Shown here: one piece after another, positions 11,023 to 45,092 of the stretch
How the letters are laid out: every line of letters begins with the position of its first letter
Position numbering within the stretch: the stretch's first letter is position 1
From: Streptomyces niveus
GTDB taxonomy: Bacteria > Actinomycetota > Actinomycetes > Streptomycetales > Streptomycetaceae
DNA length: 64,000 bases
Direction: 5' to 3'
NCBI RefSeq assembly: GCF_002009175.1
Contig: NZ_CP018047.1
Coordinates: 7,493,001-7,557,000 of the forward strand
The notes under the pieces: generated by a model
The model's database searches: none
Seen by the model: only the letters and a program-made list of their open reading frames with translations
What the model was told of the DNA's origin: nothing
Translations under genes and position numbers: made by a program

Positions 11023-11120
11023 GGGGATCTTTCTGGTGGTGGCGTAGAAGGTGGCTGACGGCGCCGGCCGATCTCGCCAGCGGGACACCGGCGTTCAAGC
11101 TCCCGGCGGGTCGCAGCAGG

Positions 11121-17329: not shown

Positions 17330-17343
17330 GTGGGTTCTCCAGT

Positions 17344-27420: not shown

Positions 27421-28605
27421 CTATCGGCCGCGTACGGGCAGCGCGGCAGCGGCGGTGGTAACGGCCGTGGGCGCACTGGTGCTCGGCGCGGTGGTGGCGG
27501 CTGCTTCCGGTGTGGTGACGAAGCGCGGGCGCGGTACCCGGTGCGGGGGCAGCACACCGACGGTTGAAGACAACTCCTCGCCTGCGTCGAAGAGTTCGCG
27601 CGTCAGGGCGCTGAGCTGCCGGGCGACGAAGTTCAGGCGGGCAGCGGTGTGCCGGCCCTGCCGGGTCTCCAGCGCCTCCGCGAACTGCCCGGCCGTACGG
27701 ACGAGTTCGCCCAGGCGCTCCAGCGGTCCGGGTGCGCCGGTGGTGTCGTCGGCGGCGGTCAGCAGGACCTCTGCGACGTCCCCGCTGTGCCCGGCGACGT
27801 TCACGTCGTGGATCAGCTCCTGCAACGAGACCTCGGGAATGGCGAGGTGCTGCTGGTAGCGGGAGCCATCGGGGCGCAGCACGCCGGGGGGCACCGGCGG
27901 CGGGGCCAACTGCCCGGCCTGGTACTCGTTGTCGTGTCGTCCCAGGACCTGCCAGTCCCGTTGGTCCAGATCGCCGGCGAGGACAAGAATGGTGGAGGTG
28001 TCGTCCTCGATGAGATAGGCCAGGGTGATGAGACGGCCCTGGGCGTCGTACCACGACTCGAACGGCTCCAATTCGCCCCGCTCGTGTGCGGCCTGTGCGC
28101 GATCGGTCCACGTGTTCTGCTGGTCACCGGTGAACTCGGGTGCCGGGGTGCGGTGCTGGTCGACGAGGTTGGTGAGGATCGTGCTGTGTTCGGCCCACGC
28201 GGTCAGGTAGGGCCAGAGCGCGCGGTGCTGTTCGCGGGCCGCGTCGCTGCCGGGCGGAGTTGTGTCGGTGAGGATGCGGTGGATGTGGGTGGCGGCGTGG
28301 TCGAGGTCGTCCAGCAGGAGGAGCCACGCACCGTGGTGGCGGGCGGGCGGCATGCTGTCGATCGCGGACCGTGCCGTTGCCAGCAGCGTCTGCGTATGGG
28401 GGAGCAGGTGTTCGGTGAAGGCGGCTGCGGCGTCACGGTTGCGCTCGGCGCGGGCCGTTGTAGCAGCCGGGGGGTCGGTGATGGTCCCGTGTCGGCTGCG
28501 CAGGGTGTCCAGCGTGGTCTCGCACTTCAGGTGGATGACCGAGAAGCGCACGGCGTAGCCGCGGACATGGGCGGCGAGGTCTGACGGGGCGGTGGTGTCG
28601 GGGAT
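27421..28605 (-). CDS. Hypothetical protein, probable ATC start
   Basis: 394 residues, mostly helical, not recognised. Stretches such as HRALWPYLTAWAEHSTILTN and ARLNFVARQLSALTRELFDA recall the 120-190-residue helical proteins of the array; the middle (LITLAYLIEDDTSTILVLAG) is beta. The last 50 residues are Ala/Thr/Pro-rich. The first canonical codon is GTG at 28551, without a ribosome site. Seventeen well-coded residues precede it, beginning at ATC 28605, which has GGAG seven bases upstream. ATC is therefore the probable start. Confidence 0.65.
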   Translation of the reverse strand: MPDTTAPSDLAAHVRGYAVRFSVIHLKCETTLDTLRSRHGTITDPPAATTARAERNRDAAAAFTEHLLPHTQTLLATARSAIDSMPPARHHGAWLLLLDDLDHAATHIHRILTDTTPPGSDAAREQHRALWPYLTAWAEHSTILTNLVDQHRTPAPEFTGDQQNTWTDRAQAAHERGELEPFESWYDAQGRLITLAYLIEDDTSTILVLAGDLDQRDWQVLGRHDNEYQAGQLAPPPVPPGVLRPDGSRYQQHLAIPEVSLQELIHDVNVAGHSGDVAEVLLTAADDTTGAPGPLERLGELVRTAGQFAEALETRQGRHTAARLNFVARQLSALTRELFDAGEELSSTVGVLPPHRVPRPRFVTTPEAAATTAPSTSAPTAVTTAAAALPVRGR

Positions 28606-28632
28606 GGGTTCTCTCCGGAAGCAGGCGTGGGG

Positions 28633-28965
28633 TCAGCGGTGGCGGGCTGCGGGCACGGTGGAGCCCGGGGGTGTGGCCGGCCGGGTTTCGTGGGCGGCGG
28701 CCTGCGGGCTCGTGCGCAGGGTGGGGTCGAGGGTGAGCGGGTAGCGGGCGGCGGTGAGCATGTCGGCGGCCCAGGAGGCGTGTTCGTTCTCCCACTCGAC
28801 GCCCATGTCGAACGGCAGGCGGACCCACTGGCCCGACAGGGTGGGGAAGGTCAGGAACCCGGCCCGCCGGAGCAGCGAGGCGGCGAGCGGGTCGAGAGGA
28901 CCGGTGGCTTCGACCTGACCGCCGCGCCCGCGTGTGATGCGGATCCGCTCGGCGCCGGGCGTCAC
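28633..28965 (-). CDS. Hypothetical protein
   Basis: 110 residues. ATGPLDPLAASLLRRAGFLT, then GQWVRLPFDMGVEWENEHA, then AARYPLTLDPTL has the alpha/beta order of the YHRLP family (LL-R-AGF ... RLP ... A-RYPL-LDP), so it is probably another divergent copy. The GTG start overlaps the upstream stop (GTGA). Function unknown. Confidence 0.7.
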   Translation of the reverse strand: MTPGAERIRITRGRGGQVEATGPLDPLAASLLRRAGFLTFPTLSGQWVRLPFDMGVEWENEHASWAADMLTAARYPLTLDPTLRTSPQAAAHETRPATPPGSTVPAARHR

Positions 28966-29414
28966 CGCGACCGACCGGTCGTGGGGGAGCGCAGGCGGAC
29001 CGTGGGCGTGTAGTCCGGCACCGGCGGGACCGTACGCACGGACGCCGCCGAGGTGATGGGGACCGTACGCCGCTGCGACGAACGCCCCGCTGCCTGCGCG
29101 ATCCGGGCGCGCCGCTCGGAAAGCCCGTTCGGCAGGGCGGGCGTCGTCGGCGGGCCTGCCGACTGGGCGGGGTCGAGGGCGATGTCGGCATGGACGGTGT
29201 ATCCGTGGCGGCGCAGGTCGTTCACGGCCTGCCGGGTACGGCGCCGACCGTCCTTCTCGGGGTCCGTGAGCCGGTAGAGGCCCGGGTCGCCGGGGACGGG
29301 CTCGAACTGGACGCGGGTCAGGAACCAGTCGGCCAGATGCGGGGCCAGCTCAGGAGAGGCGGCGGCGACGAAGCCGTGGTCGGGGTGGGTACCGAAGTGG
29401 AAATGCTCAGACAG
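28962..29414 (-). CDS. Hypothetical protein with CTG start
   Basis: 150 residues. The N-terminus reads SEHFHFGTHPDHGFVAAASP, then HLADWFLTRVQFEPVPGDPG, LYRLTDPEKDGRRRTRQAVN and LRRHGYTVHADIALDP; the last part matches the GY-x-V unit shared by 16913, 17344 and 18780. No ATG, GTG or TTG lies between the in-frame TAG upstream and the GTG at 29225, which is inside the conserved unit. CTG at 29414, with AAAGGG six bases upstream, is the probable start. The stop overlaps the next gene (GTGA). Confidence 0.68.
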   Translation of the reverse strand: MSEHFHFGTHPDHGFVAAASPELAPHLADWFLTRVQFEPVPGDPGLYRLTDPEKDGRRRTRQAVNDLRRHGYTVHADIALDPAQSAGPPTTPALPNGLSERRARIAQAAGRSSQRRTVPITSAASVRTVPPVPDYTPTVRLRSPTTGRSR

Positions 29415-29434
29415 AGGGATCCCTTTCTAGGGCG

Positions 29435-30616
29435 TCAGAGGTGCGCGTTCACCGACGGGGTGGGGAGGGCTGGGCTGGTGGTGAGCAGCCGTGGGCTGGG
29501 TGTGGAGAGGGCGACGTGCCCGCCGGGGACGGCGGCGCGGGCCTGTCGCTCGAACGTCTCGCTGTCGGCGAGCCATGTCCCGATCGCGGGCAGGACCGCG
29601 GTGCCGAGCGTGCTGCGCACCTGGGACCACTCCTGGGCCGACAGGTCTGCGGGGATCGAGTACAGCTCCGCGCGCAGGGCGTTGAACTCGTCCCAGGCGT
29701 TCTGGCTGTCGGCGAGTGCGTCGCGCAGCCGGGACAGTGCGCCGGCGTCCTGCGGCCACGGGCTGGCCGTGGGCCGGCACCGGGCGAGCAGGAGCGGTGC
29801 GTGCTGGAGGACGTCGCGGAAGGAGAGCCAGGCGTGGTCGGCGAACGCCCGCTCCATCTGGGCGTGGAGCCGTGAGCCGGCGTGCGGTGTGCCGTCACCG
29901 GGCCGGTGGGACGCCTTGATCGTCTGAAGTGTTTCGTGCTCCGGACGGATCCGGTTCAGTGCGCTCATGACCGTGTCGAGCCGCCGCTGGTACAGGGCCC
30001 GGCGGTAGTTCGGCAGGAAGGTATGGGCGACGGCGCGTGCGGCACGGTCCACCTCGGCGGGCAGCACGATGCTGCGCGGCGCGTTCGGCTCCTCCCAGTT
30101 GGCGTCGTAGTCCTCGGTGGCGAAGGCGCCCACGAGATAGCCGGTGGCGTGTCCGGGACGCTCGATCAGCAGCAGCTCGGTACCGGCGTGGTTGTTCAGC
30201 TCGACCGCGCAGGGAACGTGGTCGTGGAGCATGGCCTTCAGGAGGTCGCCGCTGTCCCACAGCGAGCCGATGAGGTCCTCCTGCCAGTGCCGGCGGGGGT
30301 AGGTCTTCACCGTGGCGCTCCAGTCGCCGGGCAGCCGGGCGGCGATGTCCGAGCCGATGTCGCCGAGGTAGGGGCGGCTGCTGATGGTGATGCTCGCGCC
30401 GTGCTCGTGGGCGTGGTGCACCAGGGCGTTGGCGGTGGCGCGGGCTGCCCGCGTCTGATGCGGCAGGGCGGCGAAGGCGCCGCCGGGCAGGGGGCTGAAC
30501 CCGGCTTCCCGCAGGGCATCTTGGGCCTGAGGGAACCGTGCCCCGGACGGGACGGCGACGAGGCCGTGGGTGCGGCTGGTCGAGAGGATGATGTCCGCGA
30601 TGGCCGGGTTGGTCAT
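29435..30616 (-). CDS. Hypothetical protein, long member of the three-copy family
   Basis: 393 residues. N-terminal unit: VAVPSGARFPQAQDALREAG. Central unit (about 85-225): LPGDWSATVKTYPRRHWQED, LLLIERPGHATGYLVGAFAT, PRSIVLPAEVDRAARAVAHT, LPNYRRALYQRR, matching 31982-32506 and 17994-18755. C-terminal helical region (about 230-360): FRDVLQHAPLLLARC, RLRDALADSQNAWDEFNALR. AGGAG lies seven bases before the ATG, and the ATG overlaps the stop of the glycosyltransferase gene. Function unknown; the mosaic structure suggests fusion of several element-specific modules. Confidence 0.7.
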   Translation of the reverse strand: MTNPAIADIILSTSRTHGLVAVPSGARFPQAQDALREAGFSPLPGGAFAALPHQTRAARATANALVHHAHEHGASITISSRPYLGDIGSDIAARLPGDWSATVKTYPRRHWQEDLIGSLWDSGDLLKAMLHDHVPCAVELNNHAGTELLLIERPGHATGYLVGAFATEDYDANWEEPNAPRSIVLPAEVDRAARAVAHTFLPNYRRALYQRRLDTVMSALNRIRPEHETLQTIKASHRPGDGTPHAGSRLHAQMERAFADHAWLSFRDVLQHAPLLLARCRPTASPWPQDAGALSRLRDALADSQNAWDEFNALRAELYSIPADLSAQEWSQVRSTLGTAVLPAIGTWLADSETFERQARAAVPGGHVALSTPSPRLLTTSPALPTPSVNAHL

Positions 30617-31407
30617 ACCGGCACTCCTGCGCCAGTCTCCATCGGCCGGTCGCCGAATACGGGCTGGGACTGGTGGTTGCGCAGGGCGGAGCGCAGACTG
30701 CGGCCGTACTGCCAGGCGTGCTCCCGGGCCGCCGACTCCAGCTCGTCGTACCCGGGCTGGGTAGTCATCTGGCCTGGGTGTTTGCGGTATCGGTAGACCG
30801 GCAGGCGCAGGAGGATGCCGGGGGCCAGGCTGGTGACGCCGATGGCCGTCATGTAGTCCTCGCCCTGGACGAGGCCGCCCATCGGGGCTGCGCGCACCAG
30901 ATCGGTGCGGGCGAGGATGGTGGTCGGCCCGATCGGGATGGTGTCCGCCGGGGTTTTCCAGTACGTCCACACGTCGCCGGCCTCGTGCCGTCCCGGCGGG
31001 GCGGGGCATTCCCACAGGGTGGTCGAGCCGTCGGGGTGGAGGTCCTGACTCCAGCCCGCGCTCCAGCCCACCCCGGCCGATTGCAGGGCGGTCAGCCGCA
31101 CGGACATGGCGGCGTCGGTGAACTCGTCATCGTCGTCCGCCCAGTTGACGTACTCGGTGCGGACGTCGTTGAGGGCGAGGTTGCGGGCGCAGGCGGCGCC
31201 GACGGGGCGGGGCAGGGCGAGGATGCGCACGCGCGGATCGGCCGCGAGCGGTGCCGGAAGGCGTTGGGGGTCGGCGCCGTCGATCGCGATCACCGCCTCC
31301 CACGGGACGGTCTGCCGGGTGAGGCTTGTGTGCATGGCGGTCAGATAGTCGAGGCGGTCCTCACGCAGACGGGTGGCGATGACGACCGTGATCAGGGGCG
31401 TGGGCAG
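30613..31407 (-). CDS. GT2-like glycosyltransferase, CTG start
   Basis: 264 residues. The first strand of the GT-A fold, PLITVVIATRLREDRLDYLT, lies upstream of the first ATG (31335); WEAVIAIDGADP, GAACARNLALND, and the DxD-type WADDDDEFTDA and QGEDYMTAI (the catalytic-base ED motif) follow in family order. Because the first strand is needed for nucleotide-sugar binding, the start must be upstream: CTG 31407 has GGAG seven bases before it, and no canonical start is available. The enzyme would transfer a sugar from a nucleotide donor in the cytoplasm. Its place in a conjugation array suggests modification of a surface component. Confidence 0.82.
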   Translation of the reverse strand: MPTPLITVVIATRLREDRLDYLTAMHTSLTRQTVPWEAVIAIDGADPQRLPAPLAADPRVRILALPRPVGAACARNLALNDVRTEYVNWADDDDEFTDAAMSVRLTALQSAGVGWSAGWSQDLHPDGSTTLWECPAPPGRHEAGDVWTYWKTPADTIPIGPTTILARTDLVRAAPMGGLVQGEDYMTAIGVTSLAPGILLRLPVYRYRKHPGQMTTQPGYDELESAAREHAWQYGRSLRSALRNHQSQPVFGDRPMETGAGVPV

Positions 31408-31435
31408 GAGAGCACTCCGGTGCTGTGGAAGGGGG

Positions 31436-31966
31436 TTACCGGCTGGGCGCGGGCCCGGCGGGCGGGGACTTCGGTGGGGCCGGGGGAAGGGACCGCTTCG
31501 CCTGCGGGGTGTCCGTTGTCGGCGCTGGGTCGTACTCGGCGCGCAGGGCGGCGAGGTCGGCTTCGTCGGCGAGGCCGAGTACGGACAGGCTGCGGCTGGC
31601 CGCGTCCAGTAGTTTTCGGGGCGGGGTTCCGGGCTCGGGGTAACTGCGGGGGTTGCGCCAGTGGGCGATGTTCGTGAGGAGGTCGCTCATCGTGCTCAGG
31701 GCGGGTTGGGCGGCGTCGATGAGGTGTTGGGTGATGGCGCTGACCTCGGCGGGTGTTTCGGCGGCGGCGAGCGCGGCGAGGTACGGGGCGGGGTCGGGTG
31801 CCGGGAGGGGCTCGGTGGGGAGCGGGTGTTCTTCGAGGAACTGCTTCGCGTCCCGGCGTGCCCAGCGCAGCAGGTCGCCACGGGTGGCGAGGCCGAAGTG
31901 GGCGGCGGCGATCTGCTCGGCGTCGCGGCCGGCGTTGTCGTACAGCTCGAAGTCGGGATGAGCCAG
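31436..31966 (-). CDS. Hypothetical protein with CTG start
   Basis: 176 residues. Begins AHPDFELYDNAGRDAEQIAA, then FGLATRGDLLRWARRDAKQF, which looks like a small HTH-type helical unit. SAITQHLIDAAQPALSTMSD follows, and a Pro-rich tail. The frame opens at the stop of the upstream gene (TGA at 31982), and no ATG, GTG or TTG occurs until residue 93. CTG at 31966, with GAGGAA six bases upstream, is the only convincing start. Not otherwise recognised. Confidence 0.7.
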   Translation of the reverse strand: MAHPDFELYDNAGRDAEQIAAAHFGLATRGDLLRWARRDAKQFLEEHPLPTEPLPAPDPAPYLAALAAAETPAEVSAITQHLIDAAQPALSTMSDLLTNIAHWRNPRSYPEPGTPPRKLLDAASRSLSVLGLADEADLAALRAEYDPAPTTDTPQAKRSLPPAPPKSPPAGPAPSR

Positions 31967-31981
31967 GGGAACTTCCTCTTC

Positions 31982-32506
31982 TCAGCGGAGGTACGGTGCG
32001 TGCCCGGATGAGGGGCGCGTAGGGAGGCCGTCGGCAAGGGGCAGAGTGTTGCGTGTGCTGGGCGCCGGTTGTCCTGTCCGGGCAGTGGGGCTGTTGCGGC
32101 GTACGGCGGCCAGGGCGTGCTGGTAGCGGGGGAGCAGGCGGCGGGCCACAGCTGCGGCGGCGCGGGCCGGGTCGCCGGGGACGGCGATACCGCTGGGTTC
32201 GTCCACATCGTCGAAGTAATCGATCTCGACGCTGGGTTGAAGTGGTGTGACGAGGAACTGGCCGGGTTTCAGGGGGCGTTCGATGACGTACAGCCGTTGC
32301 CCGTGGGAGCCGTTCAGTTCGGCGTCGTGGCGGAGGACGAACTGGGTCACGGCCCAGTGGACGTGCCCCAGGTCCCACACCCGGTTGCCGAGCGCGAACT
32401 GCTCGGGATAGGCGGCGTGCTGGTGGTAGTGGCTGGTCCAGGTGCCGGGCAGGCGCACGGCGAGGGCGGCGGCGAAGCCGCGCAACTCCATCGGGCGGTC
32501 GGTCAC
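31982..32506 (-). CDS. Hypothetical protein, short member of the three-copy family
   Basis: 174 residues. LPGTWTSHYHQHAAYPEQFA, RVWDLGHVHWAVTQFVLR, LYVIERPLKPGQFLVTPLQP, PSGIAVPGDPARAAAAVARR and LPRYQHALAAVRR define the common core shared with 17994-18755 and 29435-30616. This is the minimal version and sets the domain borders at about residues 15-135. GTG start with AGGTGA nearby; the gap to the OmpA-like gene is only 4 bp. No function known. Confidence 0.7.
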   Translation of the reverse strand: MTDRPMELRGFAAALAVRLPGTWTSHYHQHAAYPEQFALGNRVWDLGHVHWAVTQFVLRHDAELNGSHGQRLYVIERPLKPGQFLVTPLQPSVEIDYFDDVDEPSGIAVPGDPARAAAAVARRLLPRYQHALAAVRRNSPTARTGQPAPSTRNTLPLADGLPTRPSSGHAPYLR

Positions 32507-32510
32507 CCGG

Positions 32511-33059
32511 TCACCTGCCTCGGTGGAAGGTGAGCATCACCCGCCGGTTCTGCTTCCGCCCGGCCTCTTCGCGGTTGTCCGCGACGGGCCGTGCTTCGCC
32601 GTATCCGCGGGCGGTGAGCCGCACCTTGTTCGGCAGGTGCCGTTGCAGTACGCGTGTGACGGCGTCAGCGCGCTGCTTGGACAAGGTGAGCCCGTGGGCG
32701 GCGGAGCCGAGGTCGTCGGTGTGTCCGGCCACGGCAACGGCGCTCGATCCGGCTTCCCGGATCGACCGTGCCGCCTCGATGATCCGGCGCTCGGCGCTCG
32801 CGGAGAGACGCGCGCTGTCCTTACCGAACAGGACACCTGCGGAGAGCGCGACCTCCACCCGGTCGCCGGTTTCCTCCCGGCGGACCTCGGAACTCCCCGT
32901 CACCTTCGAGATCTTCTGCACCACGCTGATGACCCGGTAGGACGGAGCGGTTGCGGCAGGATCCGCGCCGGCCGCGTGCACGGGGCCGGCCGCCACCGAC
33001 GTGGTCAGGACCAGGCCCAGTCCCACCAGAGTTCGCTGCCTGGGAACGAGATTGCTCAT
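32511..33059 (-). CDS. Secreted OmpA-like (peptidoglycan-binding) protein
   Basis: 182 residues. An N-terminal signal peptide (RQRTLVGLGLVLTTSVAAGP, cleavage probably near VHAAGA) is followed by a linker and an OmpA C-terminal domain: GVLFGKDSARLSASAERRII, then VAVAGHTDDLGSAAHGLTLS and QRADAVTRVL, with ARGYGEARPVADN and RKQNRRVMLTF. The conserved Asp and Arg that hold meso- or LL-diaminopimelate are present (HTDD, NRRV). In a monoderm it would tether to the cell wall from outside the membrane. The ATG overlaps the stop of the lipoprotein gene before it (ATGA). Confidence 0.88.
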   Translation of the reverse strand: MSNLVPRQRTLVGLGLVLTTSVAAGPVHAAGADPAATAPSYRVISVVQKISKVTGSSEVRREETGDRVEVALSAGVLFGKDSARLSASAERRIIEAARSIREAGSSAVAVAGHTDDLGSAAHGLTLSKQRADAVTRVLQRHLPNKVRLTARGYGEARPVADNREEAGRKQNRRVMLTFHRGR

Positions 33060-33658
33060 CGGGCGGCGCCGAGGGGGATGGTGGCGTTGGGGAACGTCGG
33101 CAGCTGGAAGTCGGCGCTGCGCACGCTGGCGGGCGGGGCGGGGAACTGCGCGAACACGGGCACCATTTCACCCGCGTCGAGGGCGCGCAGGGCGGTGGAG
33201 CACAGGCACCCCCCGGCGGTGTCGCGCAGGACGTAGTACCGCAGAGAGTTCGCCGCATCGGTGAGGGTCGCGCCGGCGAGGCTGTGCATGCGGCCCGTGA
33301 TCGAGGCGTCGGTGCCGCCGTACGCGCTGATCCCGAAGAAGCTCTTGGTCCCGGTGTTCTTCAGCGTCGCGGAGACGGTGATGCTCTTGCCCGACGCCGA
33401 GCGCTCGACGTGGGTGATGGTCAGGACGATGCTGTCCCGCCCGGTCACCTGGGCAAGGCCACTGCCACCACCGTCGTCCGGAGCAGCGGTTCGGTCGGGG
33501 GCGGGGGGCTGCTCGGGTTCCGGGGCGGTGGTACGGGACTCCGATGCCCGGTCCTTCTGCGGTGGGGAGGGGTTGTCGGCGGAGCAGGCGGTCAGGGCCA
33601 GGGTGAAGGTGCCGGCGGCGAGGACGGCGGCTGTGCGAAGGCTGTTTCGTATGGTCAC
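33056..33658 (-). CDS. Secreted lipoprotein, partner of the OmpA-like protein
   Basis: 200 residues. The lipobox LALTAC (Cys at about residue 25) follows a basic and hydrophobic signal sequence. After a Pro/Glu/Asp linker, residues about 75-195 form a beta-rich domain (DSIVLTITHVERSASGKSIT, VSATLKNTGTKSFFGIS, then a CLCS pair), of the type seen in DUF4352-like extracytoplasmic domains. GGAG lies before the GTG start. The overlap with the OmpA-like gene suggests a cell-surface complex, possibly anchoring the transfer channel in the cell wall. Confidence 0.82.
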   Translation of the reverse strand: MTIRNSLRTAAVLAAGTFTLALTACSADNPSPPQKDRASESRTTAPEPEQPPAPDRTAAPDDGGGSGLAQVTGRDSIVLTITHVERSASGKSITVSATLKNTGTKSFFGISAYGGTDASITGRMHSLAGATLTDAANSLRYYVLRDTAGGCLCSTALRALDAGEMVPVFAQFPAPPASVRSADFQLPTFPNATIPLGAAR

Positions 33659-33681
33659 AGGGTGGTTCTCCGGGGGGCTGG

Positions 33682-34251
33682 TCAGCGGGTCGGGTTCGGC
33701 CCGGACGGGGTCGGCGGCGCGGGCGGCAGAGCGCTGGCCGTCGCATGTGCGGCTATCTCCGACGGGGTCGGCGGACGACGGGGGCGGTCGTCGACGTGGT
33801 CGGCGTCGTGGCTCATGCCCCCGGCGGCGACGTCCAGTTGGGCGCTGGCATCACGGAGGGTCTGTTCCAGGCCGTGGTGGGTGTGGTGGACTGCGGCCTG
33901 CTGTTCGTCGGTCGGTTCGTACGCGTCGAGGGTGTGCAGGGCGCCGAGCTGGGCGACGGCCTGCCCGAGGCCGGCGAGGGCGAGGCCGACGGGAATCGCG
34001 GCGCGTGCCACCGCGGCGGTGCCGCGGCGCAGTTCCGGTGTGTGCTGGTGAGGGTGTCGGGCGGTTTCGTCGAGCTGCCACGTCACCGCGTAGGTCAAGT
34101 CGTCGAGCAGTTCCGCGAGGTTGGACGTCTCGTCGCCGAGTCTGCTCTGCAGGTGCCCGGCGGGTGTGGAGGCCGCGGCGGCGACAGCACGGGCACGGTC
34201 CCTGAGGCGGGTGGCCAGGATCCGCAGGTGGGCGGGATTGTCGAGATCCAA
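33682..34251 (-). CDS. Hypothetical helical protein, paralogue of 34280-34843
   Basis: 189 residues, all helical. DLDNPAHLRILATRLRDRAR, LDDLTYAVTWQLDETARHPH, ELRRGTAAVARAAIPVGLAL and AGLGQAVAQLGALHTLDAYE align in order with the next protein upstream (VDFDEAGHLHMVMNELAGIA, ... QLREGTTALAHAATPTGRAL, AALGEAVTATGHLHHLA). TTG start with GGAG ten bases upstream. Such antiparallel helical proteins resemble WXG100-like or ESX-substrate-sized folds in layout only; no WxG motif is present. Confidence 0.68.
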   Translation of the reverse strand: MDLDNPAHLRILATRLRDRARAVAAAASTPAGHLQSRLGDETSNLAELLDDLTYAVTWQLDETARHPHQHTPELRRGTAAVARAAIPVGLALAGLGQAVAQLGALHTLDAYEPTDEQQAAVHHTHHGLEQTLRDASAQLDVAAGGMSHDADHVDDRPRRPPTPSEIAAHATASALPPAPPTPSGPNPTR

Positions 34252-34279
34252 CGGGAAGACACTCCAGGACACGAAGGGG

Positions 34280-34843
34280 TCAGCGGCCGTGCCCCCGGTG
34301 CGAGGAGGACGCCGCCGGGACGGGAAGCGTGGTGAGAGCCGAAGGCGCGGCCGGTGCCTGCGCGGTGAGCAGACGGTGTGCGTCCGCGCGGAGTTGCCGG
34401 GCGGCGGCGAACAGGTGGGCACGCGCCTGGGTGACGTGGACGCCCAGTACCTCGATGGTGTGCTGGAGGTCCTCCGCGTGCCCGGGGCCCGGTGGGCTGT
34501 GGGCGAGGTGGTGCAGGTGCCCGGTGGCGGTGACCGCTTCGCCGAGCGCGGCAAGGGCACGGCCGGTGGGTGTGGCGGCGTGGGCCAGGGCGGTGGTGCC
34601 TTCCCGCAACTGTGCTGTGTAGCGGCCGGGGTACCGGCGGGCTTGGCGGTCGCGGGTGGCGACGGTGTGGGAGAGGTAGGTGAAGTGGCGGGTCAGGTCC
34701 CGGATCGCGTCCTCCAGGTCCTCGGTCGTACTCGACCGTGAGGTCGGGTAGATCTGGGTGACGAGCGGGAGCCGGTCGGCGATGCCCGCCAGTTCGTTCA
34801 TGACCATGTGCAGGTGGCCGGCCTCGTCGAAGTCGACGGCCAG
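34280..34843 (-). CDS. Hypothetical helical protein, probable CTG start
   Basis: 187 residues, tandem paralogue of 33682-34251. Aligning the two N-termini (DFDEAGHL with DLDNPAHL) puts the start at or near CTG 34843, which has AAGG five bases upstream; no ATG, GTG or TTG fits (the first ATG is within the helix). An AGGAG further upstream is followed by CTAGAA and would not give this frame a normal start. Helical through its length with a Pro/Ser tail. Function unknown. Confidence 0.62.
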   Translation of the reverse strand: MAVDFDEAGHLHMVMNELAGIADRLPLVTQIYPTSRSSTTEDLEDAIRDLTRHFTYLSHTVATRDRQARRYPGRYTAQLREGTTALAHAATPTGRALAALGEAVTATGHLHHLAHSPPGPGHAEDLQHTIEVLGVHVTQARAHLFAAARQLRADAHRLLTAQAPAAPSALTTLPVPAASSSHRGHGR

Positions 34844-34904
34844 GGTGACCTTCTTCGGTTCTAGGGAACTCCTCGCGTCCGGTGAGCACGCTCGGCGTCG
34901 GCCT

Positions 34905-35282
34905 CTAGCGGCGTCGGCCGGATACGTTCGTCGGCGGCGCAGGCGTCGGCAGGGCGCCGGCCGACGAGTGCGTGACCCGGACGGAGCGTTCGGGGGGCGA
35001 TGTGGTGAGGGCGCGCATCCGGTCGACGGCGAGGTGCAGGTCCTCATTCAGCCGCCGGATGTCGACGGCGGCTTCCTCGAAGTCCTGGGCGAGGTCGAAC
35101 CCGTCGTCCGCGTCGGACTCCTTGGCCTTCTCACCGGTGGCTTCGAAGAAGTCCGCGAGGCGTTCCAGGGCACCTTCGACCGGGTCAAGAATCTCCTCGA
35201 CCAGGTCGGCGGCCTGGTCGTAGGTCTCGGTGCCTTGGAGCTGGTCGGTCAGGGCGAGAAGGTGACGTCCGTGCTCGCTCAC
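34905..35282 (-). CDS. Hypothetical acidic helical protein
   Basis: 125 residues. A strongly acidic helical core (QAADLVEEILDPVEGALERL, then DADDGFDLAQDFEEAAVDIR) with a Pro/Arg tail. The GTG start overlaps the stop of 35279-35782 (GTGA). Third in a run of helical proteins (33682, 34280, 34905) next to ParB. No recognised domain. Confidence 0.68.
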   Translation of the reverse strand: MSEHGRHLLALTDQLQGTETYDQAADLVEEILDPVEGALERLADFFEATGEKAKESDADDGFDLAQDFEEAAVDIRRLNEDLHLAVDRMRALTTSPPERSVRVTHSSAGALPTPAPPTNVSGRRR

Positions 35283-35782
35283 AGGCCGGGGAGGTGGGCC
35301 TGGCCGCCGGCTTCGGTCCAGTTGAAGGCGACGCGCTCCAGTTCACCGAGGTAGACGATGTCGGGATAGGCGCGGAAGGCGTCCGCCCGCAGGTCGGCGT
35401 ATTCCTGTATCTCGGAGTCGGCTTCGTCGACCCGTGCCCGGTTACGCAGGGACAGCCGGCTCCACTGCAGGACGTCGGAGTCGGTCGCGCGGTCCATCCA
35501 CACCCAGATCCCGTTGCCCAGCTTCAGGATGTCCTGGGGGTGGAAGAGGGACCCGTTGCGTCTGCGGCGGGGGTTGCGGTGTTCGCCGAAGCCGGTGACA
35601 AGGCTCTGGGCGAGGGTGTCCAGGGCGGCGGCCCTGACACCCGGATCGAGGTCATCACGGGCGAGCTGCTCGCGAACGGCGTCGGTGAGCCGGTTCCTGT
35701 GGAACCGGCCGTCGGCATCGGTCAGATCGACCGCGGTCTGCTCGACGATGCCCCGCAGGCGGATGAGCGCGGGGGCTGTCAC
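35279..35782 (-). CDS. Hypothetical protein coupled to ParB
   Basis: 167 residues. LIRLRGIVEQTAVDLTDADG, HRNRLTDAVREQLARDDLDP, GSLFHPQDILKLGNGIWVWM and RLSLRNRARVDEADSEIQEY are seen; mixed alpha/beta. The GTG start overlaps the ParB stop (GTGA), so it is made with ParB. This pattern is common in actinomycete elements where a small protein follows ParB; a partition or regulatory accessory role is inferred from position only. Confidence 0.7.
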   Translation of the reverse strand: MTAPALIRLRGIVEQTAVDLTDADGRFHRNRLTDAVREQLARDDLDPGVRAAALDTLAQSLVTGFGEHRNPRRRRNGSLFHPQDILKLGNGIWVWMDRATDSDVLQWSRLSLRNRARVDEADSEIQEYADLRADAFRAYPDIVYLGELERVAFNWTEAGGQAHLPGL

Positions 35783-36591
35783 GGCAGGTCACGCTCCTGC
35801 CAGACCTGGTCCATCTCCGACAGCGCGGTCATGGCGTGCGCGATCGTCTCCCGGGTGATGGGCCCGGACCCGGCGAACGCGGGGTCGTACCGGGCGAACG
35901 TACGGGTGCCACGGGCCTGGGCGAGCGGCGGGACGAGCTCATCCAGCAGGCGGGTGGCGACCCGGCGCTGCCGCTTGTCCTCCTCGACCCGCTCGGTGCG
36001 CTCCGCCCACGCCCCGGCCAGCGTCAGCGCGCCCTCGACGACGCGTTCGGCCAGTTCCGGGTCTTCCTCCCGCAGCCGGGCGAGCTGGACCTCGGCGGAG
36101 TTGGCCTTGGCCTTGTTCTCCCGCGCGAGGGCATACGCCTCGTCCAGGCCCATGGCGCCGTTGATGACGGCTTCCACGAGGTCTGCGGCGTGCAGCAGCA
36201 CAATGTTGGCCTGGCTGATCCGCCCCAGGGACAGGCCCGTCCGTTCAGAGACTGAGCGTGTGGTCTGCTCAGCGTCTGAGCCTGGCGGATGCTCAGACTC
36301 TGAGCGTGCTTTTGCGGAGATCATCGCCGCCTGACCTCTGCTGATGTTGCGGCGACGAAGGTTCACGGCGAGGGCGTAGCCGCTCGGGTCGCTTCCTTCG
36401 TAGGTCACGAACGCCGGTTCGACGGAGGCGGCTTCGCACGCCTGGAGCCTGCCGCGTCCGTCGAGGAGGCGGCCCTGGGGATCCAGAACGATGGGGTGGA
36501 GCAGGCCGCGTTCCTGAATGTCGTCGGCGAGGGCGCGCAGCTCGTCTTCGTCGAGTGGGGGAAAGAGCGTGGTGATCGGGTGAGCTTCGAT
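35779..36591 (-). CDS. ParB/Spo0J-like DNA-binding protein, ATC start
   Basis: 270 residues. The N-terminal ParB nuclease/CTPase-like domain: HPITTLFPPLDEDELRALAD, then GLLHPIVLDPQGRLLDGRGR, then CEAASVEPAFVTYEGSDPSG. LRRRNISRGQAAMISAKARS and LSLGRISQANIVLLHAADLV follow, the ParB helix-turn-helix region. The first 61 residues lie upstream of the first canonical codon (GTG 36408), so initiation must be at a near-cognate codon: ATC 36591, seven bases after AGGAG (an ATC at 36594 is adjacent). No ParA gene was found. Such ParB proteins can also regulate element transcription. Confidence 0.88.
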   Translation of the reverse strand: MEAHPITTLFPPLDEDELRALADDIQERGLLHPIVLDPQGRLLDGRGRLQACEAASVEPAFVTYEGSDPSGYALAVNLRRRNISRGQAAMISAKARSESEHPPGSDAEQTTRSVSERTGLSLGRISQANIVLLHAADLVEAVINGAMGLDEAYALARENKAKANSAEVQLARLREEDPELAERVVEGALTLAGAWAERTERVEEDKRQRRVATRLLDELVPPLAQARGTRTFARYDPAFAGSGPITRETIAHAMTALSEMDQVWQERDLP

Positions 36592-36673
36592 GATGGGGCT
36601 CCTGGTGGTGCGGGGAAGGGTTGCTGGCGCCGGGGTTCAGGGAGGACGCGGGTCCGGCGGGAAGGTACGGCGG

Positions 36674-37838: not shown

Positions 37839-39353
37839 TCAGTTCATGCGGGCGTCGGTGTCGAAGAGTGCCAGTTCGTGGGGGTGGAGCTGGTGCTGGA
37901 CGATGAAGGACCGGCCGGCGACTTTCCACAGGCCACGGCCGCGGTTGAGGTGGGCGATGGCGTCCATCTCGACGCCTGTGAGGCCGAGGAGGGAGGCGGC
38001 GGCGTGGAGCTGGTCGGTTTCCTGGCGGTAGATGATGCGGGTGGAGCAGTCCGCGAGGAGCCCTTCGGCCAGTGCCCGGCCTTGTGATCCGGCGTCGCCT
38101 GCGGTGAGGAGGTCGGACAGGCGGTGGATGACCATGAGGTTGGCGATGCCGAGGCCGCGGGAGAGTTTCCACTGGGCCTGCATGCGCTGCAGGAGGCCGG
38201 GGTGGCGCATGAGGCGCCAGGCTTCGTCGTAGACGATCCAGCGCCTGCCGCCGTTCGGGTCGGTGAGGGCGGATTCCATCCAGGCGCTCGCGCAGGTCAT
38301 CGCGAGGACGAGGGCGGTGTCGTCGCCTGAGCCGCCGAGGCGGGACAGGTCGATGGTGAGCATCGGCGCGGCGGGGTCGAAGGCGACGGTGGAGGGGGCG
38401 TCGAACATGCCGGCCAGGTCACCGTGGACCAGTCTGCGCAGGGCGTGGGCGAGATCGCGGGCGGCGTCGCCGAGGTGCCCGGACATCATTCCGGCGGCCT
38501 CGTCCAGCGTGCTGGGGTTGTTGAGGGCGGTGGCGATGTCGCCGAGCAGCGGTACCTGGTTGCCGCGGGCGGCGTGGGTGACGACCGTGTCGAGGGCGAC
38601 GTCGAGCGCGGTGTGCTCCATCGGCATCAGGTCCCGCCCGAGGACGGTCCGGGCCAGTGAACCGAGCAGCAGCAGGCGCCGTTTGCGGATCTCGCCCGCC
38701 CAGTCCGTCTCCGATACGGAGGCGGGGCGCGGGGCCGCGTCCAGTGGGTTCAGCTTGCCGGGGAGCCCCGGTCCCAGGGCGACGGACGTGCCGCCCAGCG
38801 CGCTCGCGACGGGTGTCCATTCGCCTTTGGGGTCGCACGGGACGTAGACGCGGTAGCCGAACGCCACGGAGCGCAGCGCGAAGGACTTGGCCAGGGCGCT
38901 CTTGCCCTGGCCGATCACCCCGGCCAGCAGGATGTTGGGGTTGGTGAAGCCCTCGATCTTCCCGTAGAGGGCGAACGGGTCGAACACGAAGCTCGCTTCG
39001 GCGTGGACGTCACGGCCGACGTAGATGCCCTCCGCGCCGAGCCCGCCTTCGGCGAGGAACGGATAGGCCCCGGCGGCGACGGCGGTGGTCATCCGGTGGG
39101 CCGGCAGGCGCAGCCTGTTCCCGCGGGCGGAGCTGGACCCGGGTCGTCCGCCCGCCGGATACAGCGGTGCCGGTGTCTCGTGGTCGGCTGGCGTACTGCC
39201 GGTGGTGTGGGCGGCGGTTTCGGTGCGGGCTTTGGCGGTGGCTTCGGCGAGCCGGCGGCGGGCTGCCTTCTTGCTGGCGCGGTCGGTGCCGTGGGGGGTG
39301 AACAGCGGGCTGGCGGAGGCGCGTCGGGCGCGGCGGGAGGGGCGGTGGTTCAT
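37839..39353 (-). CDS. VirB4/TraC-like conjugation ATPase
   Basis: 504 residues, the length of the C-terminal ATPase portion of VirB4 proteins. A basic N-terminus (RPSRRARRASASPLF) precedes NPNILLAGVIGQGKSALAKS (Walker A at about 143-150), VYVPCDPKGEWTPVASALGG, PMLTIDLSRLGGSGDDTALV, GRRWIVYDEAWRLMRHPGLL (Walker B, the typical VirB4 YDEAW), LSRGLGIANLMVIHRLSDLL and ADCSTRIIYRQETDQLHAAA. It would energise assembly or substrate passage of the type IV channel at the inner face of the membrane. The ATG overlaps the stop of the small gene before it (ATGA). Confidence 0.93.
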   Translation of the reverse strand: MNHRPSRRARRASASPLFTPHGTDRASKKAARRRLAEATAKARTETAAHTTGSTPADHETPAPLYPAGGRPGSSSARGNRLRLPAHRMTTAVAAGAYPFLAEGGLGAEGIYVGRDVHAEASFVFDPFALYGKIEGFTNPNILLAGVIGQGKSALAKSFALRSVAFGYRVYVPCDPKGEWTPVASALGGTSVALGPGLPGKLNPLDAAPRPASVSETDWAGEIRKRRLLLLGSLARTVLGRDLMPMEHTALDVALDTVVTHAARGNQVPLLGDIATALNNPSTLDEAAGMMSGHLGDAARDLAHALRRLVHGDLAGMFDAPSTVAFDPAAPMLTIDLSRLGGSGDDTALVLAMTCASAWMESALTDPNGGRRWIVYDEAWRLMRHPGLLQRMQAQWKLSRGLGIANLMVIHRLSDLLTAGDAGSQGRALAEGLLADCSTRIIYRQETDQLHAAASLLGLTGVEMDAIAHLNRGRGLWKVAGRSFIVQHQLHPHELALFDTDARMN

Positions 39354-39814
39354 CGGATGCAGGTGGTGGTGTGGCCGTGGAGCGGGGTGTTGAGGTCGGT
39401 GGGGGTGGTCTTGCGGCGGATCGTGTGCCCGGCGGCGAGGTGCCGCTGGCAGATGGTCAGCACGGGCGGTCCTTCCGGCAGCTGCTCCGGATGGCACTCC
39501 GACGCCGCTGCGGTACTGGTGGTGGCGGGCAGCAGGTGGAAGGCGTCGTGAACCGCGGTGGTGGCCTGCCACAACCGGGTGTGGGCGGTGGCGAGTTGGC
39601 GGCCTGCGGCCGGGTGCGGCGGGCGCGCCGTCTCGGCGATCTGGTCGAGGAGCCGGTGCAGGGCGGTGAGGTGGGCGTGGAGTACGTCGAGGTGGGGGCG
39701 GCCCACCGGTTCCGGAGGTTCTGAGCGTTCCTGGGCGCGGGTGTGGTGGCGGATACCGGCGGTCGAAGCACGCAGGTAGGGGTGCGCGTCGTCGGCACGC
39801 GGGGGAGAGGTCAA
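39350..39814 (-). CDS. Hypothetical protein between SCO6880-like and VirB4-like genes
   Basis: 154 residues. Helical N-terminus (LDVLHAHLTALHRLLDQIAE, TAHTRLWQATTAVHDAFHLL), then PPVLTICQRHLAAGHTIRRK with two Cys near the end. AAGGA lies six bases before the TTG start. Its conserved position between two transfer ATPase-type genes and four-base overlap with VirB4 suggest a transfer accessory role. Confidence 0.7.
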   Translation of the reverse strand: MTSPPRADDAHPYLRASTAGIRHHTRAQERSEPPEPVGRPHLDVLHAHLTALHRLLDQIAETARPPHPAAGRQLATAHTRLWQATTAVHDAFHLLPATTSTAAASECHPEQLPEGPPVLTICQRHLAAGHTIRRKTTPTDLNTPLHGHTTTCIR

Positions 39815-42825: not shown

Positions 42826-43515
42826 TCACTGGGTGACGGTGGGCGCGAGGGCGGCCAGGGAGCAGTCCTTGCTGGGACGGCACTGCACGGCGAGCGTCAC
42901 CGCGCGCTCCTCCGCACCAGCACCACCCTTCGACCATCCGATCCGCTGCGTGCCGTTGACGGTGACGACGTAGATGTACGCGTCGGTGATCGCCGACGGG
43001 TCCTCCGCCAGGGCCTGCTTGAACGCGGAGGGGAAGTGGCCCTCGGTGACCGTGGCGGTGGTGTGCTGGTCCTGATCCGCCAGGCGCGACCAGAGCAGCG
43101 GATCGGGCACCTGACCGGCGACGGACACCCAGTCGGCGTACTCGCCTTCCTTGGTCAGCCACTCCCGCATACCGGCGAGTTGCTGATCACGGCTGGTCGT
43201 GCGGGTGTCGTAGGACCAGAGCATGACGGCTGCCGCTTTCGCGAAAGCGACCGGCTCAGCGATCTGCGCAGGGGCGGGCACCGAACCCGCCCCGGTTGAG
43301 GTGGGCGGCTTCTGGGTGGGTACGCCCGCGGAGGAACTGCTGGTGGCGCCAGGGGTGATGGAGTTGTTGTGCTGGTCGGCGCGACCGGTGAACCACGCGA
43401 CGGTGCCGGCAACGGCCAGCAGTGCTGTGAGGACGAGCACCACGATGAGGATGCGGCGATTCGCCGACCAGCCCATTCCGTACCGGTCTAGTGCGGGGAA
43501 GCGATTCGGTTTCAC
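42826..43515 (-). CDS. Bitopic membrane protein, VirB8/TcpC-like
   Basis: 229 residues. A short cytoplasmic N-terminus, one membrane segment (ILIVVLVLTALLAVAGTVAW at about 19-38), a Ser/Pro linker, and an extracytoplasmic alpha/beta domain (about 90-229) with AEPVAFAKAAAVMLWSYDTR, ITDAYIYVVTVNGTQRIGW and a C-terminal Cys pair (VQCRPSKDCSL). The layout and size suit the VirB8/TcpC assembly factors that share an NTF2-like fold; sequence similarity alone is not decisive. The GTG start overlaps the DUF6112 gene stop (GTGA). Confidence 0.75.
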   Translation of the reverse strand: MKPNRFPALDRYGMGWSANRRILIVVLVLTALLAVAGTVAWFTGRADQHNNSITPGATSSSSAGVPTQKPPTSTGAGSVPAPAQIAEPVAFAKAAAVMLWSYDTRTTSRDQQLAGMREWLTKEGEYADWVSVAGQVPDPLLWSRLADQDQHTTATVTEGHFPSAFKQALAEDPSAITDAYIYVVTVNGTQRIGWSKGGAGAEERAVTLAVQCRPSKDCSLAALAPTVTQ

Positions 43516-43826
43516 TGGACCTGCTCCCCCAGCGCGGAGAAGAACTCCACGACCCCGTTGGCGGCACCGAGCCCCAGTGCGGCGCCGGCCGCGACGACCG
43601 CGCCCTTCTTGCCGTTGGCCTCGGCCTGGTGGCCGCCGGAGTGATGGCCCCAGGCCCACACACCGAGCGAGACGGCGAGCGCGCCGACGACGGCGACGAT
43701 CCCGAACAGGTTGATCGAGTTGACGACGTTCTTCAGTACGGCCAGGCCCGGCAGACCACCGTCCGACGGGGTGATGCCCGGGTCGTAGGCCAGATGCCGC
43801 AGACGGTCAGCGAGGAACAGGGAAAT
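43512..43826 (-). CDS. DUF6112-like small membrane protein, ATT start
   Basis: 104 residues. SLFLADRLRHLAYDPGITPS, GLPGLAVLKNVVNSINLFGI, VAVVGALAVSLGVWAWGHHS and GAVVAAGAALGLGAANGVVE give two membrane segments and the small-protein pattern of DUF6112, a VirB2-like or pilin-like subunit position in these loci. AAGGAG is followed, after seven bases, by ATT at 43826; the GTG at 43847 lies before that ribosome site and has none of its own. So ATT is the probable start. The stop overlaps the next gene. Confidence 0.83.
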   Translation of the reverse strand: MSLFLADRLRHLAYDPGITPSDGGLPGLAVLKNVVNSINLFGIVAVVGALAVSLGVWAWGHHSGGHQAEANGKKGAVVAAGAALGLGAANGVVEFFSALGEQVQ

Positions 43827-43940
43827 GGCGGAACTCCTTGCATACACGGGCCAAATGAGACCGGCGGAAGGGAAAGGGCGAGAGCGGTCGCCGGGGGCGA
43901 AAGGGGCCCCGCCAGAGCAGTGCCCGGATGGAGTACGGCG

Positions 43941-45092
43941 TCAGAGGACGCGGCGCACGGTGAGGATCGTCCAGTCCTTCAGCGGTGTGATCCGTACCGG
44001 CTTGCCGGTCCTGGGCGCTTCGATGACGAGTCCCTCGCCCATGTACAGGCCGACGTGCTCGGGACGTGCGGCGGTGCCGCGGCTGAAGATCAGGTCACCG
44101 GGCTCCAGGGCCTTCGCCGAGACCGCGACGCCTTCGTTGACCTGGGTGTATGTGGTGCGGGTGAGGGCGACGCCGGCGTGCTTGTACGCCTGCTGCATCA
44201 GGGAGCTGCAGTCGCAGCGGCCCATCGGGTCGGGGCCGTGGGCATCGGTGCAGGTGCCGCCCCACTGGTAGAGCGTTCCGAGCCGGCCCATCGCCCACCG
44301 GATCGCCTCGCGGGCCTCGGCCGGGGCGTCCTTCGGGATCACATAGCCCTTCGGCACGCTGCCTTCGGGGATCCGCCCGTATCCGGAGCCGTCCTCGCCC
44401 GGCTCACACCCGGAGACGTCCGTCTCTGCGGTCGGGTTGTCGCCGGTGTTGGGGAAGGTGTCGGCGATGGCCTTCTGCAGGGCGGTGGCCAGGTCCTCCC
44501 ACTGCGCGTACGCGTCCGGGTGCCCGGACTGCTGCACGGCCTGGGCCGCCTGGGTGACGGTCAACTGCTCCCAGCCGTCTACTCCGAGCAGCCGTTGGTA
44601 GAACTTCTCGCTCGCGTGGATCGGGTCCCGGATCTGCTGCGCGGTGCCCCAGCCCTTCGACGGGCGCTGCTGGAAAAGGCCGAGCGAATCGCGATCGCCG
44701 AAGCCGAGGTTGCGGAGCCGGGATTCCTGCAGTGCGGCGGCGAGCGCGACGATCTGCCCCCTCTTCGGCACCTTGAGACCGATGCCGGTGGCGACGATCT
44801 TCCTCGCGTTGGGGACCTGCTCGGCGGGCAGGTCCAGACCCGGGATTCGCACGGTGTCGCTGTCCGCGCCGTCGAGGAGCTTGGCGACCTGATCAGTGAT
44901 CCTGCCGGTGTCGAAGGTGCAGCCCGTGAACTGGCCGCCCTCTTGGGCGGCTTCGCCGGCGGAGGCCGCCATCAGGGCGGCACCGGTCAGGAGGAGAGGG
45001 GAGAGGCAGAGGACGCCGATACCGGCGGCTACACCCTTCAACCCGGCCCGTCCTGGCGGATGTTCGGCAGGAGGGTGGTCGGGGGCGGGCAA
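43941..45092 (-). CDS. Cell-wall hydrolase: lytic-transglycosylase-like plus NlpC/P60 (C40) peptidase
   Basis: 383 residues. A membrane anchor (GIGVLCLSPLLLTGAALMAA) is followed by a goose-lysozyme/SLT-like region, VALAAALQESRLRNLGFGDR with SLGLFQQRPSKGWGTAQQIR, and a C-terminal NlpC/P60 domain with the nucleophile in GRCDCSSLMQQAY, the His in RPEHVGLYMGEG and the third polar residue in VIEAPRTG. Equivalent to VirB1/TcpG hydrolases that open peptidoglycan for the channel. Start uncertain: TTG 45092 is chosen from codon bias; ATG 45161 would add 23 poorly biased residues. It is the first gene after the leftward promoter at 45194-45222. Confidence 0.88.
   Translation of the reverse strand: MPAPDHPPAEHPPGRAGLKGVAAGIGVLCLSPLLLTGAALMAASAGEAAQEGGQFTGCTFDTGRITDQVAKLLDGADSDTVRIPGLDLPAEQVPNARKIVATGIGLKVPKRGQIVALAAALQESRLRNLGFGDRDSLGLFQQRPSKGWGTAQQIRDPIHASEKFYQRLLGVDGWEQLTVTQAAQAVQQSGHPDAYAQWEDLATALQKAIADTFPNTGDNPTAETDVSGCEPGEDGSGYGRIPEGSVPKGYVIPKDAPAEAREAIRWAMGRLGTLYQWGGTCTDAHGPDPMGRCDCSSLMQQAYKHAGVALTRTTYTQVNEGVAVSAKALEPGDLIFSRGTAARPEHVGLYMGEGLVIEAPRTGKPVRITPLKDWTILTVRRVL

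What the first reader, a model, noticed from the sequence alone, without database searches (positions are those of the whole stretch)
28603..36594. Cluster of genes that appear to start at CTG or ATC
Genes at 28605 (ATC), 29414 (CTG), 31407 (CTG), 31966 (CTG) and 36591 (ATC), and perhaps 34843 and 11022 (CTG), have good Shine-Dalgarno sequences 5-7 bases before a near-cognate codon and no usable ATG, GTG or TTG before conserved coding sequence. Together with two ATT cases elsewhere this is far more than expected for a bacterial region. Near-cognate starts lower and condition initiation (IF3 sensitivity), so it could be a way to keep transfer genes at low, tunable levels.
Basis: partly seen in the sequence, partly recalled or inferred. 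Interest (0 to 1): 0.88.

Follow-up and report, generated by a model that had tools for sequence, protein, structure and literature searches.

The report
Conserved near-cognate start codons, Streptomyces element
In a mobile-element gene cluster of a Streptomyces chromosome, several genes appear truly to begin at the unusual start codons CTG or ATC, and related genes in other Streptomyces often keep these weak start codons, which points to inherited low-level protein production rather than sequencing error.

Summary
CTG (29414, 31407, 31966, 34843), ATC (28605, 36591) and ATT (43826) follow Shine-Dalgarno (SD) sequences. Homologues show this is inherited: g30613 has CTG in 40 of 43 distinct sequences, placed relative to the SD rather than the protein; the aligned codon of ParB-like g35779 is ATC, ATA or CTG in 29 of 30 same-genus sequences; g34280 has CTG in 16 of 18, g28962 CTG or TTG in 71 of 81. 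Matched control: canonical-free near-cognate starts with SD in 87 of 470 element homologues against 1 of 89 around infC, that one being infC itself, which starts at ATC. One IF3 gene; initiator-type tRNAs found all have anticodon CAT. In the window weak starts stand at separately initiated genes and most ATG/GTG starts at overlaps; in relatives the second half is weaker. Best reading: conserved weak starts cap translation of accessory genes, probably through IF3 discrimination as shown for sigR. Start sites: strong; function: inferred. ATT 46327 is not supported; CTG 11022 is untestable. New variant of a known kind.

The parts
27421..28605 (-). g27421, 394 aa, unknown; start ATC 28603-28605, SD GGAGAG 28611-28616
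   Evidence: of 27 non-redundant homologues ATC/ATA/ATT 7, ATG 11, GTG 2, unassigned 7; 4 with no canonical alternative
28633..28965 (-). g28633; GTG at 28965 in a GTGA overlap with the stop of g28962 (possible coupled tail)
   Evidence: overlap read from the coordinates
28962..29414 (-). g28962, 150 aa, unknown; start CTG 29412-29414, SD 29420-29427, in-frame TAG 4 codons upstream
   Evidence: CTG 37, TTG 34, ATG 7, GTG 3 of 81 distinct start regions; model confident from the residue after CTG
29435..30616 (-). g29435; ATG overlapping the stop of g30613 (possible coupled tail, comparison gene)
30613..31407 (-). g30613, family-2 glycosyltransferase; start CTG 31405-31407, SD GGAG 31415-31418
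   Evidence: CTG in 40 of 43 distinct sequences
31436..31966 (-). g31436, unknown; start CTG 31964-31966, SD 31972-31978
   Evidence: TTG 8, CTG 7, ATC 2, ATG 2, GTG 1, unassigned 4 of 24
34280..34843 (-). g34280, unknown; start CTG 34841-34843, SD 34849-34856
   Evidence: CTG 16 of 18 distinct, 10 of 12 non-redundant
35279..35782 (-). g35279; GTG at a 4-nt overlap (possible coupled tail, comparison gene)
   Evidence: (GTG 9 of 9)
35779..36591 (-). g35779, ParB-like; start ATC 36589-36591, SD AGGAG 36599-36603
   Evidence: aligned codon ATC 16, CTG 11, ATA 2, CTC 1 of 30 same-genus sequences
37839..39353 (-). g37839, VirB4-like ATPase; ATG (comparison gene)
   Evidence: (ATG 25 of 25)
39350..39814 (-). 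g39350, DUF6238; conserved TTG
   Evidence: TTG 34 of 35
43512..43826 (-). g43512, DUF6112; start ATT 43824-43826, SD AAGGAG 43834-43839
43941..45041 (-). g43941, NlpC/P60; conserved TTG
   Evidence: TTG 18 of 18

Best explanation
Supported by comparison: at least six genes at 27.4-36.6 kb and one at 43.8 kb start at CTG, ATC or ATT placed a few nt after a real SD, and such weak codons are retained in many homologues of the same genus. Inferred: the ordinary initiator tRNA (anticodon CAT) reads them as fMet with one mismatch, so initiation is slow and exposed to IF3 proofreading. Inferred: the weakness is selected. In the window the weak codons head genes that are initiated separately, while most genes behind them start with ATG/GTG in a stop-start overlap. 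Weak heads would thus cap, and through IF3 make adjustable, the output of accessory genes of a T4SS-bearing element.
For: g30613: CTG in 40 of 43 sequences; 29 of 41 assigned ones have exactly 6 nt between SD tetramer and codon, while the linker to the conserved block is 5-8 codons. CTC, 40% of host Leu codons, was not seen at that site. 40 homologues have no canonical option. g35779: aligned codon near-cognate in 29 of 30. S. niveus keeps the codon at four of five compared sites; at g34280, 19 of 30 upstream nt differ yet CTG stays behind a differently built SD. Matched control: 87 of 470 element against 1 of 89 core homologues. Host infC starts at ATC, as in all 15 of 20 fetched genomes where the motif was found; the sigR GTC motif occurs once. 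One IF3 gene; three CAT tRNAs and no other anticodon among matches to the initiator arm pattern that ARAGORN calls tRNA. Window gaps: nine weak starts (CTG, ATC, ATT, TTG) all at 15-114 nt; nine of twelve ATG/GTG starts at 7 nt or less. In relatives overlaps are ATG/GTG 38 of 134, near-cognate 2 of 62, TTG 2 of 78.
Against: No protein or ribosome data. Start-codon identity is conserved in ATG and GTG families too, so retention alone does not prove selection for weakness. g27421, g31436 and g28962 include homologues with ATG/GTG. In relatives 93 of 134 ATG/GTG starts also have gaps of 10 nt or more, so 'weak head, coupled tail' is a tendency, not a rule. The element loci were fetched because they match these genes, which favours the element side. 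By an SD-only rule g35779 gives ATG 2 and unassigned 4 of 29 (pseudomonad rows included). In mycobacteria CTG was not enriched and ATC weak in a reporter (PMC4633059). IF3 action here is by analogy only.
Confidence: 0.65

Rival explanations
1. The CTG/ATC are internal Leu/Ile codons of longer proteins that start upstream at an ordinary codon.
For: Five pseudomonad plasmid relatives of g35779 are annotated to start five to seven codons upstream of the aligned residue and have Tyr or Leu at this site. In many homologues of g28962 the upstream frame is open for more than 50 codons.
Against: In-frame stops in 40 homologues without canonical codon, some inside the SD itself (L179, L189). CTG alone where a Leu site would show CTC too. 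In g30613 the codon follows the SD, not the protein.
Confidence: 0.05
2. Termination-reinitiation: ribosomes finishing the upstream gene restart at the weak codon, so the codon enforces coupling rather than independent weak initiation.
For: Four weak starts lie only 15-28 nt after an upstream stop.
Against: Near-cognate starts avoid overlaps (2 of 62, both in the g29435 family, where the next codon is ATG in the example read), lie 61-114 nt away for g34280, g35779 and g43512 and carry their own SD.
Confidence: 0.2
3. Near-neutral drift: weak starts with good SDs are tolerated in genes needing little protein, with no regulatory role.
For: Start codons of every kind change slowly in these families. 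The genes look accessory.
Against: Families use several weak codons (ATC, ATA, CTG in g35779; CTG, TTG in g28962) while ATG/GTG, one substitution away, are few (10 of 81 in g28962) or absent at the aligned codon (g35779).
Confidence: 0.3
4. A variant initiator tRNA or special IF3 from the element reads these codons.
For: Clustered use in one element.
Against: No tRNA in window or the two 20-kb flanks. Only CAT among tRNAs with the initiator anticodon-arm pattern. One IF3 gene, at 6.70 Mb, far from the window.
Confidence: 0.02

Closest known systems
sigR of Streptomyces, GTC start repressed by IF3 (PMC5472188; abstract, section 6 and Discussion read)
   Same: Same genus, non-canonical start after a strong SD, conserved across species; IF3 control shown there
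   Different: One chromosomal gene with GTC; here CTG/ATC/ATT in seven families of an element, IF3 control untested
infC, non-canonical start
   Same: Host infC uses ATC after AGGAGG, the codon seen in g35779 and g27421
   Different: Housekeeping gene; its IF3 autoregulation is recalled, its non-canonical start is called well documented in PMC5472188
Mycobacterial leadered start-codon reporter (PMC4633059; passages and section 11 read)
   Same: Actinobacterial test in which ATT (9.8%) and weakly ATC (0.2%) act as leadered starts
   Different: CTG was 0.03% and not enriched, whereas CTG is the commonest near-cognate start here
Conserved non-AUG starts in chloroplasts (PMC9845219; abstract read)
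   Same: Evolutionarily conserved non-AUG starts proposed as a control layer
   Different: Organelle genes; said there to serve high expression
T4SS-type ICEs of Streptomyces (PMC9513070; 12 passages read)
   Same: VirB4-like ATPase and coupling protein
   Different: 'start codon' occurs 0 times in its main text; borders and mobility not established here

Membership tests
Near-cognate-started bacterial genes (infC/sigR type) | Non-ATG/GTG/TTG codon at the SD-defined start, no canonical alternative | tested here: met
Near-cognate-started bacterial genes (infC/sigR type) | Conserved across species | tested here: met
   clearest for g30613, g34280, g35779, mixed for g27421, g31436, g28962, g43512
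Near-cognate-started bacterial genes (infC/sigR type) | Translation shown to begin there | not testable with these tools
   needs N-terminal peptides or ribosome profiling
Near-cognate-started bacterial genes (infC/sigR type) | Repression by IF3 | not testable with these tools
   analogy to PMC5472188 only
T4SS integrative and conjugative element | VirB4 ATPase and coupling protein | tested here: met
   TraG-D_C/T4SS-DNA_transf over cut-off at 11121-12899; VirB4-like hits, below curated cut-off, at 37839-39353
T4SS integrative and conjugative element | Integrase, relaxase, att sites, transfer | not tested
   borders not searched
ParB/RepB family (g35779) | ParB-type domain | tested here: inconclusive
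   similarity to plasmid proteins, several annotated ParB/RepB/Spo0J; Pfam and NCBIfam hits below cut-off, the Pfam one not ParB
Family-2 glycosyltransferase (g30613) | PF00535 above cut-off | tested here: met
   41.2 bits, cut-off 23.3

The most novel reading that the evidence does not exclude
These elements carry an IF3-gated translational regulon. A set of accessory genes is fitted with CTG/ATC/ATT heads, often followed by ATG/GTG coupled tails, so one host signal (free IF3 relative to ribosomes, the same that acts on infC and sigR) raises or lowers the whole set without any element-encoded regulator.
Probability: 0.3. Interest if true: 0.88.

Novelty: new variant of a known kind. Interest (0 to 1): 0.72.

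Why it matters
Gene finders that accept only ATG, GTG and TTG would truncate or misplace whole protein families like these. Conserved CTG starts are unexpected given that CTG was not enriched in a mycobacterial reporter. The cluster offers a ready test set, with ATG/GTG neighbours as internal controls, for the question why bacteria keep weak start codons and whether IF3 level is a natural regulator of mobile elements.

Tried and rejected
Codon-agnostic start prediction from single sequences was too noisy: a canonical codon came out best in only 85 of 278 background genes, so homologue comparison replaced it. A second single-sequence scan gave as many hits for control sense codons as for near-cognates in the relatives (45 and 45 of 762). 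The first core control gave false 'forced' cases, probably because the query ran into conserved upstream coding sequence; one search replaced it. In one search the ORF 28633-28992 looks start-less in 19 of 21, 18 of them without SD, which I explain by its modelled coding start lying upstream of the GTGA overlap at 28965. ATT 46327 rejected. A near-cognate hit in the 16915-17416 model and a CTG gene 5 kb right of the window (HTH/MmyB-type regulator) were not followed. Variant initiator tRNA rejected. A first chromosomal control gene had no homologue at the cut-off in 22 genomes. A structure for g28962 was made but not compared with others because the search machine was busy. Passages of PMC8914203, PMC8780764 and PMC4895711 were looked at and gave no start-codon frequency that I could use.

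Rows left out of counts: matches starting beyond residue 22 (25), 12 or 8, matches too near a locus end, and repeated start regions; one search prints at most 16 rows a gene. In one search, not reaching the start: 0 of 143, 19 of 78, 3 of 33, 0 of 18, 1 of 42, 39 of 91 and 3 of 26 for g28962, g30613, g31436, g34280, g35779, g27421, g43512. One search counts for g35779 include the pseudomonad rows. Searches were read by eye.
Full report
Setting. The window is G000:C1:7493001-7557000 of an 8.0-Mb, single-contig genome. Genes from about 1 to 45 kb are mostly on the - strand. A TraG/VirD4-type coupling protein (11121-12899), SPDY/DUF317 proteins, a VirB4-like ATPase (37839-39353), SCO6880- and SCO6881-family proteins and an NlpC/P60 protein mark a T4SS-bearing element. 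Its borders were not mapped, so 'integrated element' is an inference.

The sites. Reading the - strand around each claimed start: 28605 ATC, 29414 CTG, 31407 CTG, 31966 CTG, 34843 CTG, 36594/36591 ATC ATC and 43826 ATT each follow an SD. For 29414 the in-frame TAG lies four codons upstream; the codons between it and conserved protein are AAA GGG ATC CCT CTG. The 29414 gene is not among those five, and one of the five, at 16915, is doubtful.

Homologues. g27421 was matched in 21 of 150 genomes, own included, g28962 in 106 of 392, g35779 in 29 of 392 at E <= 1e-15, g30613 in 48 of 392 at E <= 1e-60. Under a rule that lets any nearby canonical codon with an SD win, distinct start regions, window included, gave: g28962 CTG 37, TTG 34, ATG 7, GTG 3 of 81; g30613 CTG 23, ATG 2, GTG 1, none 1 of 27; g34280 CTG 16, GTG 2 of 18; g35779 ATC 8 of 8; g31436 CTG 8, TTG 8, ATG 2, GTG 1, ATC 1 of 20; g27421 ATC/ATA/ATT 8, ATG 9, TTG 4, none 10 of 31; g43512 ATC/ATT/ATA 7, ATG 11, TTG 2 of 20. 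Comparison genes of the same elements: g37839 ATG 25 of 25, g35279 GTG 9 of 9, g22281 ATG 6 of 6, g36674 ATG 8 and GTG 1 of 9, g42826 ATG 17 and GTG 3 of 20, g41437 GTG 19, TTG 6, ATG 4 of 29. Two are less clean: g29435 ATG 18, TTG 7, GTG 7, CTG 5, ATC 1, none 2 of 40, and g31982 ATG 18, GTG 3, ATC 3, ATA 1, TTG 1, none 11 of 37. Five families are mainly TTG: g24077 12 of 13, g39350 34 of 35, g39882 25 of 30, g43941 18 of 18, g45418 16 of 16. The element leans to weak starts. A redundancy-reduced count over all loci agrees and leaves 40 homologues with a near-cognate and SD in which no ATG/GTG/TTG exists between the in-frame stop and the conserved block.

Two families weigh most. In g30613 (glycosyltransferase, PF00535) 40 of 43 distinct sequences have CTG and one GTG; the other two read CTT/TTG (L221) and CTG behind a weaker SD (L160). 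The distance SD to codon is 6 nt in 29 of 41, while the distance from codon to conserved block is 5 (11), 6 (1), 7 (2) or 8 (27) codons. The codon belongs to the SD, not to the protein. In g35779 (ParB-like) the aligned codon is ATC 16, CTG 11, ATA 2, CTC 1 among 30 same-genus sequences down to about 40% identity, and some have the in-frame stop inside the SD (L179, L189). A blind SD rule on this family gives ATC 14, CTG 6, ATA 2, ATT 1, ATG 2, unassigned 4 of 29. Five pseudomonad relatives are annotated to start five to seven codons before the aligned residue and have Tyr or Leu here, so an internal hydrophobic residue was a serious rival; stops and SD geometry exclude it where present. Host Leu usage is CTG 0.56, CTC 0.40.

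Close relative. Streptomyces niveus (L162) keeps CTG at the sites of 31407, 31966 and 34843 and ATC at that of 36591. At 34843, 19 of 30 upstream bases differ but CTG stays, behind a differently built SD. At g28962 it uses GTG two codons upstream instead, the clearest counter-example.

Matched control. With one procedure for both, canonical-free starts carrying a near-cognate codon with SD occur in 87 of 470 element homologues (25 gene models) and 1 of 89 core homologues (8 gene models around infC); the single core case is infC itself. The element loci were fetched by matches to this cluster, which favours that side. The count is led by g28962 21 of 39, g30613 19 of 24, g31436 8 of 13, g34280 8 of 17, g27421 8 of 22, g35779 7 of 8; g29435 (5 of 25), g31982 (4 of 33), g43512 (4 of 22), g34905 (2 of 18) and g28633 (1 of 21) follow, and 14 models have none. 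The procedure is conservative: it flags infC in only 1 of 15, although infC reads AGGAGG..ATC AGC GCT/C GAG in the 15 genomes of 20 where the motif was found. A de novo scan of relatives (48 of 820 gene models) turned up two more such families not in the window set: a protein of about 190 aa with CTG (8) and, by eye, a lipoprotein whose signal peptide follows the CTG (3), ATC (2) or ATT (1) directly.

Mechanism. The tRNAs found with the usual initiator anticodon arm all have CAT (3 genes) and there is one IF3 gene, so ordinary fMet-tRNA with one mismatch is the likely reader. In Streptomyces, IF3 repression of a non-canonical start is shown for sigR GTC (PMC5472188; abstract, section 6 and Discussion read). 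The host carries the sigR motif once and an ATC-started infC. In the window all nine weak starts between 27 and 45 kb that have a gap in the list, TTG included, have gaps of 15-114 nt to the upstream stop, while nine of twelve ATG/GTG starts overlap or lie within 7 nt (by hand, 220/293930 under random assignment; not every one of those starts was checked against homologues). The GTGA at 28965 adds a coupled case. In relatives overlaps are ATG/GTG 38 of 134, near-cognate 2 of 62, TTG 2 of 78, but 93 of 134 ATG/GTG starts have gaps of 10 nt or more. So weak starts avoid overlaps, while strong starts are not confined to them.

Fold. The g28962 model (residues after CTG; mean pLDDT 71) is confident from its first residue (block mean 91), with the first strand at residues 4-9. 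This fits an N-terminus at the CTG but does not prove it.

Literature. None of the rows listed by eight searches in the held open-access library is, by title and abstract start, on near-cognate starts in Streptomyces conjugative elements; several lists were capped (for example 25 of 2,251), and most subscription papers are not held. In a mycobacterial reporter CTG was 0.03%, ATC 0.2% and ATT 9.8% at the leadered position (PMC4633059, section 11), which makes conserved CTG starts surprising.

Verdict. Real and conserved near-cognate starts: highly likely. Function as IF3-sensitive low-output heads: plausible, untested. It may work like infC/sigR control; membership in an IF3-regulated class is not shown.

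Noticed in passing
L165, L149, L157, L146, L143, L147 (six of eight shown): A family of about 190 aa (LSTRSxIARPT..) outside the window set also starts at CTG after an SD, in 8 gene models without canonical option.
   Followed up: partly
L155, L156, L034, L035, L142, L157: A family that looks by eye like a lipoprotein starts at CTG, ATC or ATT with the signal peptide directly behind, independent support for these N-termini.
   Followed up: partly
window 24077-25282, 39350-39814, 39882-41354, 43941-45041, 45418-46173: Five element families with a mostly or fully conserved TTG start, compared with 14 TTG among 270 crude chromosomal calls.
   Followed up: partly
G000:C1:6702973 (L175) and G000:C1:2542125 (L176): Host infC starts at ATC and the sigR GTC start motif is present once.
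   Followed up: yes
G000:C1:10992-11968: Pieces similar to window gene 10258-11088 (86% over residues 46-251) lie about 11 kb from the chromosome end.
   Followed up: no
L071:4692-6371, - strand (about 7561.7-7563.4 kb): TAGGAGG followed by CTG at the modelled start of an HTH/MmyB-type regulator ORF just right of the window; the HTH begins only at residue 277, so the start may be elsewhere.
   Followed up: no
window 33682-34272, 34280-34843, 36674-37240, 37230-37775: Neighbouring genes encode similar-looking Ala/Leu-rich proteins by eye, perhaps old paralogues.
   Followed up: no
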